Of a DNA stretch of 7,650 nt, positions 4,588 through 6,934 are shown one piece after another. A program made the position numbers and the translations under genes. The notes under the pieces were generated by a model. That model had not been told where the DNA came from, did no database searches, and saw only the letters and a program-made list of their open reading frames with translations. The number at the start of each line of letters is the position of its first letter. The first letter of the stretch is position 1. Source of the DNA: a bacterium (lineage in GTDB: Bacteria > B130-G9); the NCBI GenBank assembly GCA_021160245.1, contig JAGHCW010000078.1, positions 1-7,650 of the forward strand, read 5' to 3'.

Positions 4588-4616
4588 TTGCCTTTTGTCG
4601 GATTGAAGCTTATATT
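4588..4616 (+). promoter_or_regulatory. Sigma70-type promoter of the candidate small RNA
   Basis: TTGCCT (4588-4593, 4 of 6 matches to the -35) is followed by exactly 17 nt and then TATATT (4611-4616, 5 of 6 matches to the -10). Initiation would fall at about 4622-4624, immediately before a series of stem-loops. Promoter, structured transcript and terminator are all on the plus strand, within about 115 bp. Confidence 0.6.
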
Positions 4617-4621
4617 ATGGG

Positions 4622-4703
4622 TAATCCGGGTTTCCGGAGGTGGATGGTATCAAAGAACCATCGGAGAGGGGTCCGCGCTTAAAAACCGGGCCCCTTTTCT
4701 TTT
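4622..4703 (+). ncRNA. Candidate structured small RNA convergent with the DUF3800 gene
   Basis: The predicted transcript of about 80 nt has three consecutive stem-loops. Stem 1 is TCCGG/CCGGA with a GTTT loop (4625-4638). Stem 2 is GATGGT/ACCATC with an 8-nt loop (4643-4662). Stem 3 is the GC-rich terminator stem (4668-4694) followed by a T tract. A 17-nt-spaced promoter lies just upstream. The last ~25 nt are antisense to the 3' end of the DUF3800 coding region. Published comparative searches have described several RNA motifs named DUF3800-I onward that occur near DUF3800 genes. Whether this RNA belongs to one of them, or acts in cis or trans, is inference. A 12-codon frame (ATG 4644 to TAA 4680-4682, SD-like GGAGG only 3 nt upstream) runs through it, so a short leader-type peptide cannot be excluded. 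Confidence 0.5.
4668..4703 (+). terminator. Intrinsic terminator of the candidate small RNA
   Basis: GGGGTCCG (4668-4675) pairs with CGGGCCCC (4687-4694), eight pairs including one T-G wobble, and TTTTCTTTT follows (4695-4703). The T tract is on the plus strand, fixing the direction away from tRNA-Arg(UCU) and into the 3' end of the DUF3800 gene. On the minus strand no T run follows the hairpin, so it would not readily terminate the DUF3800 mRNA. Confidence 0.75.
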
Positions 4704-5566
4704 GCGGGTATGAGCATCTTCAGCGAGGGAGCTTCTTCTAGTCGCCAGGGCAAAAGCTTCTTCCCCCATCCATAGACGACCTCGCGAGGTCCCCGATAAT
4801 ACTTCCCTTGCAGTATGTTGATGACACTTCGAGCAAACGGCGCGATCTTTCTTGGAAGCAATCCGAAATCGCTGAGTATCTCATTGCAGCTCGGATGGGC
4901 GATGAGGTCTGCTAATTGCAGCCCTGAGATATTGTCCTTCTTGGGTTTTACTTTGAGCTCTCTGCTGGTTAATACCGCCTGGAAACGCTCCTGAGAGACA
5001 TAGTCGGTTCCCTTTTCCCAGAGCCTATTGAATGATCCCTTAAGACGTCTGTCAGCTTTGCCACCCCTGGCCTCTGCCATCGCGTCTCCCCGGCTGTTCA
5101 AGTTCTCCAGAAAAAAGACATAACGTTCCAACAAAACCTGCAAGCAATAGTGATATGGGTCATAGGTCCAAACCGCATACATTTTCTTGTGCCGTTTCTT
5201 GTCGATACAGACGGTGATCACGACATACTGCCAAGACCGCAAATGCGCCAGAAAATCGCTATCAAAGCGTTTTCTAAGCGTACCATCTTTGAGAGCGTTG
5301 AAAGGATAGTTTGCATTCATAATCTCTTTCCGATGGAGTATAAGAGGCGGGTTGTCAGGATGGGGGCTGAAAAACTCCTGTTTCAAGGCCTCCATTTCGG
5401 GATGTAGAACATCCCTAACATACTCCAAGTTAACAACGACGCCCGTTAGACTTAAGAATCTATGATTGGGATCCTCAGAGCTTTCCAAGTCGGCGTTACC
5501 TACCTCATCTATGTAGATTCGATAGGCGGGCGTCGTAAAAGTCCCTTCTCTCGATGGTTGTCTCAT
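4679..5566 (-). CDS. DUF3800 domain protein, putative RNase H-fold nuclease
   Basis: The 295-aa product has the DUF3800 pattern: YIDEVG at residues 18-23 (D20, E21) in place of the common YIDESG, a conserved LHRKEI near 77-82, AEARGGKAD near 164-172 with E165, and NISGLQLADLIAHP near 212-225 with D220. Spaced acidic residues on these strands fit an RNase H-like active site, and length is about typical. DUF3800 proteins are scattered in accessory regions, often near mobile elements, and their activity is largely uncharacterised, so nuclease function is inference. ATG 5566 is the only usable start before the first conserved strand. Its ribosome site is poor, with GCAGGT abutting it. Only 30 bp separate the start from an IS256-type element, so the native promoter may be lost. 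The 3' end overlaps the terminator of a convergent small RNA. Confidence 0.82.
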   Translation of the reverse strand: MRQPSREGTFTTPAYRIYIDEVGNADLESSEDPNHRFLSLTGVVVNLEYVRDVLHPEMEALKQEFFSPHPDNPPLILHRKEIMNANYPFNALKDGTLRKRFDSDFLAHLRSWQYVVITVCIDKKRHKKMYAVWTYDPYHYCLQVLLERYVFFLENLNSRGDAMAEARGGKADRRLKGSFNRLWEKGTDYVSQERFQAVLTSRELKVKPKKDNISGLQLADLIAHPSCNEILSDFGLLPRKIAPFARSVINILQGKYYRGPREVVYGWGKKLLPWRLEEAPSLKMLIPAKEKGPGF

Positions 5567-5596: not shown

Positions 5597-5615
5597 GTGT
5601 GTAAATTAGGTTAGG
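5597..5615 (+). repeat. Left terminal inverted repeat of the IS256-type element
   Basis: GTGTGTAAAT is followed by TAGGTTAGG. It aligns with the complement of the right end over about 19 positions with one gap and a few purine or pyrimidine changes. Confidence 0.7.
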
Positions 5616-5674
5616 CGGTGTTTACCTTAGTTGTGTAAGAAAAGGCAATTAAGGTGAAGAAAGGAAACACCGCC
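5614..5674 (+). repeat. Inverted repeat enclosing the transposase ribosome binding site
   Basis: GGCGGTGTTT (5614-5623) is perfectly complementary to AAACACCGCC (5665-5674), which ends at the base before the transposase ATG. Directly inside, ACCTTA (5624-5629) pairs with TAAGGT (5650-5655), leaving a 9-nt bulge that contains most of the AAAGGA ribosome site. A transcript entering from outside would carry the whole hairpin and could hide the start region. A transcript begun inside it would not. This would limit transposase made from read-through, as known for other insertion sequences. The role is inferred. Confidence 0.6.
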
Positions 5675-6919
5675 ATGAGCAAGAAGAGCACAGAGAATGA
5701 TAGAGAGTCAAGCCCGTGTTGGGAGGGTCTTGATGCGTGGATTCGGGGCGAGATTCAAAGATGTTTTCAGGACGTGTTGGAAGAGGAAGTGACGGCATTT
5801 CTAGGTAGGTCAAGATACGAGCGGCGAGACGCTATCGATGCGTCCTTAGGCAGCCGCAATGGCTACGGTAAGCCTCGGAATGTAACGTTGAGTTGCGGGA
5901 CTATAACGGTTCGGCGTCCACGAGTTCGGGAGGTTGAGGAGCGTTTCGAGAGCCGTCTCTTGCCGTTTTTTCAGCGTCGCACGAAAGAAGTGAACGAGTT
6001 GATACCCGAGCTGTACTTGCACGGTCTTGCCGAGGGGGATTTCGACCTAGCACTTCGGGGCCTCTTGGGCGCCGATGCGCCGATCTCGGCCTCGACCGTT
6101 GCGCGTCTGAAGACGAAATGGCAGGCGGAGTTTCGGGAATGGTCCTCGCGTCCGCTGGATGCCCTTGAGGTGGTGTATCTCTGGGTTGACGGGATTTATG
6201 TGAAGGCTGGCTTGGAGAAGGAGAAGGCGGCGGTTCTCGTCGCGATCGCGGGCTTAAGCGATGGCCGCAAAGTTGTCGTGGCCGTCCAGCCGGGACATCG
6301 TGAGTCGATAGAGAGTTGGTCTTCGTTCTTAAGGGACTTGAAGAAACGCGGCATGAATGCGCCTCGTCTGGTCATCGGGGACGGCCACCTGGGCATTTGG
6401 GGCGGTCTGCGAAACATCTATCCCGAGTCGCGGGAGCAACGGTGCTGGAACCACAAGATGCGTAATGTCCTGGACAAGTTACCTAAGAAGCTCCAGCTGG
6501 ACGCGAAGTTGTGTTTGCGACGAGTGGTTTACGCCTCGTCCACAGCGGAGGCAGAGCGGGAGAAAGCGAGATTCCAAACCTGGTGTCGTGAACTTGATCA
6601 GGAGAGAGCTGCTTCAGTCTTGGACCGAGATTGGGAGCGGATGGTAACATTCTTCAAGTATCCCGAAGAGCACTGGAGACACCTTCGGACAACGAATCCC
6701 GTCGAATCGCCGTTCGCAAGCGTGCGGTTGCGAACTAATGCCGCCAAACGCTACAAGAAAGTCGATAACGCGACAGCGGTTCTGTGGAAAATGCTGATGA
6801 TAGCAGAAAGGAGGTTTAAACGACTAAAGGCGCCAGAACTTATGAAACGGGTCTTTGACGGCACCGTTTATATCGATGGAAAAGACAATCAGATTGACAA
6901 AACAAACCAAGCCGCTTAA
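5675..6919 (+). CDS. IS256-family (Mutator-like) DDE transposase
   Basis: The 414-aa protein has the IS256/Mutator catalytic triad: D172 in LWVDGIYVKAG, D236 in VIGDGHLGIWGGL and E344 in TTNPVESPFASVRLRT. The family C-x2-H motif is present as CWNH (C257, H260). An N-terminal region with QDVLEEEVTAFLGRSRYER, RNGY and TITVRRPRVR matches the family's DNA-binding part. The protein moves the element by cut-and-paste or copy-paste through a circular form. I place the start at ATG 5675, with AAAGGA 9 nt upstream. A GTG 21 nt further upstream would add seven residues but has a poorly spaced ribosome site and lies inside the hairpin. Length is normal for the family, with no frameshift or missing catalytic residue, so the enzyme is probably active or only recently inactive. 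Confidence 0.95.
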   Translation: MSKKSTENDRESSPCWEGLDAWIRGEIQRCFQDVLEEEVTAFLGRSRYERRDAIDASLGSRNGYGKPRNVTLSCGTITVRRPRVREVEERFESRLLPFFQRRTKEVNELIPELYLHGLAEGDFDLALRGLLGADAPISASTVARLKTKWQAEFREWSSRPLDALEVVYLWVDGIYVKAGLEKEKAAVLVAIAGLSDGRKVVVAVQPGHRESIESWSSFLRDLKKRGMNAPRLVIGDGHLGIWGGLRNIYPESREQRCWNHKMRNVLDKLPKKLQLDAKLCLRRVVYASSTAEAEREKARFQTWCRELDQERAASVLDRDWERMVTFFKYPEEHWRHLRTTNPVESPFASVRLRTNAAKRYKKVDNATAVLWKMLMIAERRFKRLKAPELMKRVFDGTVYIDGKDNQIDKTNQAA

Positions 6920-6934
6920 CTTGTATTTACACAC
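6915..6934 (-). repeat. Right terminal inverted repeat of the IS256-type element
   Basis: On the minus strand this end reads GTGTGTAAAT then ACAAGTTAAG. It matches the left end perfectly for 10 nt and imperfectly beyond. The transposase stop codon (6917-6919) lies inside it. Confidence 0.7.

What the first reader, a model, noticed from the sequence alone, without database searches (positions are those of the whole stretch)
4588..5566. DUF3800 gene paired tail-to-tail with a compact structured RNA
The sequence shows a promoter with a 17-nt spacer, three stem-loops and an intrinsic terminator packed into about 115 bp on the plus strand, ending inside the last codons of a minus-strand DUF3800 gene. 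Published comparative work described a set of RNA motifs (DUF3800-I and following) found near DUF3800 genes, function unknown. This pair may be another example or a new subtype. The RNA could be a guide, substrate or inhibitor of a putative RNase H-fold nuclease; that part is inference.
Basis: partly seen in the sequence, partly recalled or inferred. Interest (0 to 1): 0.7.

Follow-up and report, generated by a model that had tools for sequence, protein, structure and literature searches.

The report
DUF3800 nuclease gene with partner RNA
A gene for an RNase-H-like nuclease of unknown function carries, tail to tail, a gene for a tiny three-hairpin RNA; the same pair recurs in at least ten bacterial phyla, sometimes inside anti-phage loci, so the RNA is almost certainly the nuclease's dedicated partner and may hold it in check.

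Summary
Window 4623-4703 (+) encodes a constant RNA of about 80 nt: three hairpins, the last a terminator, with a sigma-70 promoter placing the start at AAUCC. It recurs at the 3' end of close DUF3800 homologues in at least 10 phyla, on the opposite strand, with extensive compensatory change (0/500 shuffles reach it). A covariance model built without the window finds the window at E=1e-12. In 39/39 intact homologues its U-tract lies -3 to +20 nt from the stop codon. In Bacteroidota and Desulfobacterota surveys every DUF3800 protein close to this clade has the RNA; distant DUF3800s lack it but mostly carry a different convergent RNA. No Rfam 15 family matches, including DUF3800-I and -IX. The protein is predicted with high confidence to have an RNase HII-like fold. 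Some cassettes sit in restriction-modification loci, three between type III res and mod. The RNA has no room for a guide. In four lineages it survives after the gene is gone; an intact gene without RNA was never seen. Best reading: an RNA-controlled nuclease, RNA probably inhibitory, untested. New subtype of a known kind, unless already among the 2017 DUF3800 motifs, which could not be consulted.

The parts
4588..4593 (+). -35 box (TTGCCT) of the RNA promoter
   Evidence: position conserved among homologues
4611..4616 (+). -10 box (TATATT), 17-nt spacer, 6 nt before the inferred start AAUCC
   Evidence: -10 box ends 5-6 nt before AAUCC in 24/24 non-Bacteroidota RNAs
4623..4703 (+). DUF3800-partner RNA (about 80 nt), inferred start to end of the U-tract
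   Evidence: cmsearch with model R1, which was built without the window: 4623-4700, 42.7 bits, E=1.2e-12
4625..4638 (+). hairpin H1, UCCGG-GUUU-CCGGA
   Evidence: inner pairs switch G-C / A-U / U-A / C-G across homologues
4639..4642 (+). conserved linker GGUG (invariant apart from G[G/U]UG), followed by conserved GA
4643..4662 (+). hairpin H2, GAUGGU-(8-nt loop)-ACCAUC
4668..4694 (+). hairpin H3, the terminator stem GGGGUCCG / CGGGCCCC
4695..4703 (+). U-tract TTTTCTTTT
4679..5566 (-). DUF3800 gene, 295 aa, predicted RNase HII-like nuclease
   Evidence: Pfam PF12686 E=7e-14; AlphaFold2 pLDDT 92, pTM 0.88; best PDB matches RNase HII/H2/HIII, Z up to 9.8
4679..4747 (-). derived 22-codon 3' extension plus stop of the DUF3800 gene, running into the RNA terminator; usual stop position (4745-4747) reads TGG
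   Evidence: protein alignment, stop positions of homologues

Best explanation
A two-part cassette. DUF3800 is a small nuclease with an RNase HII-like RNase H fold. Next to it, converging on its stop codon, is an independently transcribed RNA of 60-80 nt, constant within the clade: H1 hairpin, GGUG linker, H2 hairpin, terminator hairpin. Shown: the RNA is real, structured, has its own promoter at a conserved position, is co-inherited with and specific to this DUF3800 clade, and lacks any guide. Inferred: the RNA folds into a scaffold that DUF3800 binds. Most likely (inference) binding keeps the nuclease inactive, so that a fall in this short RNA, for example when a phage shuts down host transcription or the defence locus is damaged, frees the nuclease. 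That would be an RNA-antitoxin or guard module, often carried by restriction-modification and other defence loci.
For: RNA reality: 46 RNAs aligned; in the clean subset of 27, 70 double-changed cells, 95.6% of cells paired, 0/500 shuffles as high, slid controls at most 54% paired. Window found by a model that excludes it, E=1.2e-12. Promoter fixed 5-6 nt before AAUCC, and in Bacteroidota replaced by TTTG / TAnnTTTG. Specificity: U-tract -3..+20 nt from the stop in 39/39 intact genes. One copy per genome in 38 of the 39 genomes with a match; the thirty-ninth has a second, weak hit. In 395 Bacteroidota the 5 RNA hits at E<=1e-10 are exactly the 5 DUF3800 proteins with >=361 bits. In Desulfobacterota 12/12 non-overlapping gene hits with >=239 bits carry the RNA, 0/9 with <=180 bits do. 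RNA and protein distances correlate, Mantel r=0.81, 0/2000 permutations. Nuclease fold; DExG motif and invariant D20, E21, H78, K123, Q217, D220. Inhibitor reading: in four Desulfobacterota lineages (six genomes) the RNA stands alone, in two loci beside a C-terminal gene remnant, while no intact gene of the clade lacked the RNA. Genes with internal stops or frame breaks keep it. Defence setting: ResIII in 8 and N6/N4 methylase in 5 of 69 nearest-neighbour proteins; res - DUF3800 - RNA - mod in L015, L031 and L036; Eco57I, HsdR-like, Schlafen and Fic neighbours. DUF3800 also accompanies Cas12a2 and type VI-F loci (PMC10910872, PMC12669027).
Against: No experiment: neither expression, binding, nuclease activity nor toxicity was shown. 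RNA outliving the gene could be chance, because an 80-nt RNA is a smaller mutational target than a 780-nt gene, and the orphan pair L189/L190 already shows three broken pairs. A positive cofactor would also never be missing beside an intact gene. Many cassettes sit among housekeeping genes. No control set of random neighbourhoods was run for the defence enrichment. PADLOC has no matching model for the protein.
Confidence: 0.5

Rival explanations
1. The RNA is a positive, constant cofactor: DUF3800 and RNA form a guide-less ribonucleoprotein nuclease or processing enzyme, the RNA activating or positioning it.
For: Same anatomy and one-to-one linkage. An intact gene is never without the RNA. RNase H-fold enzymes often work with nucleic-acid partners; Argonaute/Piwi domains are the next PDB matches.
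Against: RNA persists where the gene is lost in four lineages, which a cofactor does not predict, though decay may simply be recent.
Confidence: 0.27
2. The RNA is a cis-antisense or convergent regulator of the DUF3800 mRNA: its transcription or duplex with the 3' end of the message limits expression, and the protein does not bind it.
For: Tail-to-tail position at the stop codon in every locus. The terminator is one-sided by inspection (no T-run on the gene strand after the stem), so gene transcripts should run into the RNA gene.
Against: Antisense pairing needs no conserved fold, yet stems covary and unpaired AAU, GGUG and GA are conserved across phyla. Overlap with the coding part is only a few nt.
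Confidence: 0.13
3. RNA-guided nuclease (OMEGA- or Argonaute-like) in which the RNA supplies a guide.
For: RNase H-like fold and a private structured RNA.
Against: Start at AAUCC and terminator at the other end leave no variable guide; only loops of about 3-11 nt vary. Single copy per genome.
Confidence: 0.03
4. The RNA has its own trans-acting regulatory role and is merely a neighbour of DUF3800.
For: Orphan RNAs exist.
Against: All strong hits in 395 Bacteroidota genomes adjoin DUF3800. Orphans keep DUF3800 remnants (L184, L187) or are decaying (L189, L190).
Confidence: 0.05

Closest known systems
DUF3800 RNA motifs (Rfam DUF3800-I RF02969, DUF3800-IX RF02968; 2017 comparative study known here from memory and from its citation in PMC10910872)
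   Same: Small structured RNA beside a DUF3800 gene; a sub-threshold DUF3800-IX hit in L146 sits at the same place, 3' of and opposite to its DUF3800 gene.
   Different: This RNA matches neither model nor any other Rfam family at E<=1 in the tested loci; in the short window search there were only weak non-DUF3800 hits, all under their cut-offs. Its consensus AAUCCnn..GGAGGUGGA.GG is its own.
BjrC68 (Rfam RF02353), an sRNA of Bradyrhizobium
   Same: Weak matches (20.6-23.4 bits) lie exactly 3' of and opposite to other DUF3800 genes in L116, L119 and L175, so BjrC68 is probably a DUF3800-type RNA; the window RNA scores 18 bits.
   Different: All scores are below the gathering cut-off of 39; belongs with the GGAUUGGG...CCCGGUCGGC type, not this one.
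Type III toxin-antitoxin systems (ToxIN, PMC8860590; review PMC5086642)
   Same: Proposed logic: nuclease held by a dedicated small RNA; defence role.
   Different: There the RNA is co-transcribed and made of repeats; here it is convergent, with its own promoter, a single unit, and the protein has an RNase H fold.
PrrC and CreTA guards of R-M and CRISPR systems (PMC2610378, PMC10097628)
   Same: Proposed logic: a lethal factor tied to a defence locus and silenced while the locus is intact.
   Different: PrrC is silenced by the R-M protein, CreT by the CRISPR effector with CreA RNA; here the candidate silencer is an RNA next to the nuclease gene.
RNase HII / RNase H2 / RNase HIII
   Same: Fold (ranks 1-14 are all RNase H2-type) and an N-terminal D-E-x-G motif.
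   Different: About 8-14% identity; the other catalytic residues not shown to coincide; an earlier study reports a catalytic rearrangement in DUF3800 (PMC10910872).

Membership tests
DUF3800 protein family (Pfam PF12686) | Profile match above the curated cut-off | tested here: met
   53.2 bits, cut-off 21, E=7e-14
DUF3800-associated RNAs (as a kind) | Conserved structured RNA next to a DUF3800 gene | tested here: met
Rfam DUF3800-I / DUF3800-IX | cmscan score above the gathering score | tested here: not met
   (cmscan); for DUF3800-I in the window's genome: no match
The 2017 DUF3800 motifs not held in Rfam | Match to the published alignments | not testable with these tools
   the paper (doi 10.1093/nar/gkx699) is not held
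BjrC68 (RF02353) | cmscan score above gathering (39 bits) | tested here: not met
   18 bits
Type III toxin-antitoxin | RNA co-transcribed with the toxin and made of tandem repeats | tested here: not met
   convergent single-unit RNA with its own promoter
Type III toxin-antitoxin | RNA inhibits the nuclease | not testable with these tools
   needs binding and toxicity assays
RNA-guided nuclease (OMEGA type) | Variable guide segment in the RNA | tested here: not met
   start and end fixed, constant sequence
RNase HII-like RNase H fold | Fold match to solved RNase HII structures | tested here: met
   Z 9.8, 172 residues, rmsd 4.1 (1eke); Foldseek E=2e-3
RNase HII-like RNase H fold | Complete catalytic residue set in place | not tested
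   D20-E21 in the first strand are invariant; spatial match of the other carboxylates not measured

The most novel reading that the evidence does not exclude
DUF3800 genes in general are RNA-controlled RNase HII-derived effectors, each clade with its own convergent RNA abutting the stop codon (at least three unrelated-looking RNA types seen here), forming a new kind of RNA-antitoxin or guard module of defence loci.
Probability: 0.35. Interest if true: 0.85.

Novelty: new variant of a known kind. Interest (0 to 1): 0.68.

Why it matters
The association of DUF3800 genes with small RNAs has lacked a function since it was reported. This cassette gives a precise, minimal and widespread test object: a constant RNA of 60-80 nt with an inferred start and end, a confident RNase H-fold model, cultured hosts (Longilinea arvoryzae, Runella zeae), natural orphan RNAs and broken genes as controls, and a defence setting. 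If the RNA restrains the nuclease, it would be a new RNA-antitoxin architecture; if it activates it, a new guide-less ribonucleoprotein nuclease. DUF3800 is also an accessory of two CRISPR subtypes, so the answer would carry over.

Tried and rejected
Rfam at gathering and permissive thresholds on the window and on further loci with this RNA: no DUF3800 family match. Terminator scan negative because of its loop limit. RNAalifold on the unadjusted MAFFT alignment gave a poor consensus and a doubtful GG-CC long-range pair that hardly varies; replaced by an anchored reading of H1 and a clean subset. Short-ORF reading: GGAGGUGGAUG looks like a ribosome site plus AUG, but the AUG is absent in Bacteroidota and other RNAs (GGUGGAAGG), so not a peptide. 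Guide RNA rejected (no variable segment). Viral contigs: no relative; phages and plasmids only distant DUF3800s at <=29% identity in the rows shown, and no convincing R1 match in those fetched. Sequence search of solved structures: no relative. PADLOC, NCBIfam, PHROGs: no useful match for the protein. A search for DUF3800-IX in relatives of G040 covered only two genomes and gave no hit.

Full report
What is in the window. DUF3800 (4679-5566, minus; Pfam E=7e-14) is followed tail to tail by a plus-strand RNA gene at 4623-4703: promoter TTGCCT-17-TATATT, then AAUCC, three hairpins and TTTTCTTTT. Folding is better than shuffles (z -3.5), but one sequence proves little, so relatives were used.

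Relatives. 53 DUF3800 loci from named genomes and members of the window's own family (G002 appears to be the same contig as the 'Candidatus Coatesbacteria' locus L059, equal length 10,894) were read at their 3' ends. nhmmer with the window RNA alone already hit 16 loci (15 distinct, L004 and L059 being the same), all at the 3' end of the gene and on the opposite strand. Reading the flanks showed the same RNA nearly everywhere: AAUCCnn-loop-nnGGA-GGUG-GANGG...-terminator. Sources include Bacteroidota, Ignavibacteriota, Chloroflexota, Planctomycetota, Acidobacteriota, Thermodesulfobacteriota, Myxococcota, Verrucomicrobiota, Armatimonadota and Fidelibacterota, plus KSB1 and Coatesbacteria.

Structure. 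In H1 the fourth pair is G-C in 23 and A-U in 23 sequences, and the second C-G in 39 and U-A in 7. On the clean subset (27 RNAs, window excluded) 95.6% of cells pair, with 70 double-changed cells against 24 in shuffles (0/500) and at most 19 in slid controls. The covariance model R1 then finds the window at 42.7 bits, E=1.2e-12, although the window was not used.

Transcription unit. In all 24 non-Bacteroidota RNAs the best -10 box ends 5-6 nt before AAUCC, and 20/24 score 9 or more of 12 against 8% of shuffles. In the Bacteroidota/Ignavibacteriota group the same place holds TTTG at -34 and TAnnTTTG at -12 to -5, which fits my knowledge of the Bacteroidetes promoter. The promoter thus follows the host while the RNA stays the same. 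Start and terminator bound a constant RNA without a guide.

Position. In 39 of 39 intact homologues the end of the U-tract lies between -3 and +20 nt of the stop codon, median 3. The window differs: its usual stop (4745-4747) is TGG, so the protein gains 22 residues and ends inside the terminator.

One-to-one linkage. Genomes holding the cassette have one RNA copy; one of 39 has a second, weak hit. In 395 Bacteroidota genomes the five RNA hits with E<=1e-10 all adjoin DUF3800 and correspond exactly to the five DUF3800 proteins with >=361 bits; the 20 more distant DUF3800 hits (<=250 bits) give no convincing match to the model. In Desulfobacterota all 12 gene hits with >=239 bits carry it and none at <=180 bits (a second fragment of the broken G723 gene is not counted; three of the twelve carry a divergent form at 28-30 bits). 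RNA and protein distances correlate at r=0.81 (0/2000 permutations). This shows co-inheritance, not contact.

Broken cassettes. Genes with internal stops or breaks keep the RNA (L059/G002, G047, G723, L033, L052, L054; some may be assembly errors). Six Desulfobacterota RNAs have no gene, falling by RNA similarity into four lineages (L184/L187, L189/L190, L191, L195). L184 keeps the last 26 codons and L187 about eight; L190 now sits by a gene that I read as DUF4276-like (not searched). L189/L190 show three broken pairs, as expected if the RNA is useless without the protein. No intact gene of the clade without RNA was found where the 3' flank was available.

Protein. AlphaFold2 gives pLDDT 92.1, pTM 0.88. 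The fourteen best PDB entries are RNase HII, H2 or HIII (Z 7.8-9.8), then Piwi and Argonaute. Z below 8 alone could be a common arrangement, but the ranking is coherent and the N-terminal DEVG resembles the RNase HII DEAG motif (own knowledge). An RNase H fold with catalytic rearrangement was reported before (PMC10910872). D20, E21, H78, K123, Q217 and D220 are invariant even with distant DUF3800s.

Setting. Among 69 nearest-neighbour proteins 8 match ResIII and 5 a DNA methylase. In L015, L031 and L036 the order is res - DUF3800 - RNA - mod of a type III system, and the DUF3800 start lies 3-4 nt from the upstream gene in L031 and L036. Others sit by Eco57I-like, HsdR-like, Schlafen, Fic or reverse transcriptase genes, yet several are among housekeeping genes. 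No random control was run, so enrichment is a strong impression, not a statistic.

General pattern. More distant DUF3800 genes mostly carry another terminator-ended antisense RNA at the same spot: GGAUUGGG-nnnn-CCCGGUCGGC in many, GAAUCC...AGUAGGAUUC-CCGGG in L130, L172 and L176. Rfam does not name these either, apart from sub-threshold BjrC68 and DUF3800-IX hits.

Mechanism. Shown: conserved structured RNA, own promoter position, strict partner of this DUF3800 clade, no guide. Inferred: complex with the nuclease; inhibitory sign. I put inhibition (antitoxin or guard) at about one half, a positive cofactor at about a quarter, antisense control at an eighth.

Novelty. The association of DUF3800 with RNAs is known. 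This RNA is absent from Rfam 15 and may be one of the 2017 motifs that I could not read. I therefore call it a new variant of a known kind, with that caveat.

Noticed in passing
L116 2246-2315, L119 2227-2294, L175 1967-2034 (minus): Rfam BjrC68 (an sRNA first described in Bradyrhizobium) matches weakly, exactly 3' of and opposite to DUF3800 genes; BjrC68 is probably a DUF3800-partner RNA, a link I did not find in the papers read.
   Followed up: partly
L116-L122, L124, L160, L162-L165, L167, L168, L170, L171, L173-L175, 3' of DUF3800: A second, widespread antisense RNA type, GGAUUGGG-nnnn-CCCGGUCGGC plus terminator, abuts DUF3800 genes in proteobacterial plasmids, phages JBD68 and Pkon1, and Bacteroidota; no Rfam family at the gathering score.
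   Followed up: partly
L130, L172, L176, 3' of DUF3800: A third type, GAAUCC...AGUAGGAUUC-CCGGG(A/C)CGGC plus terminator, at the same position.
   Followed up: no
L192, L194, L196, L207, L208, L210: Divergent form of the window's RNA (AAUCCA...UUGGAGGUGGAUGGCCCGU...) beside more distant DUF3800 proteins (35-42% identity where measured); a bridge between subtypes.
   Followed up: partly
window 5597-6934: Mutator/IS256-type insertion element (transposase 5654-6919) with GTGTGTAAAT / ATTTACACAC ends, inserted about 31 bp upstream of the DUF3800 start codon, so the gene's native promoter is probably displaced.
   Followed up: partly
window 4679-4747: Lost stop codon adds 22 residues to the window's DUF3800 protein and makes it overlap the RNA terminator; not seen in the aligned intact homologues.
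   Followed up: yes
G563: C25:33928-33985 and C110:4175-4233 (L188, L195): One genome carries the RNA twice, once with DUF3800 and once alone.
   Followed up: no
L015, L031, L036: DUF3800 plus RNA lies between res and mod of a type III restriction-modification system; in L036 the RNA promoter lies just ahead of mod, pointing away from it.
   Followed up: partly
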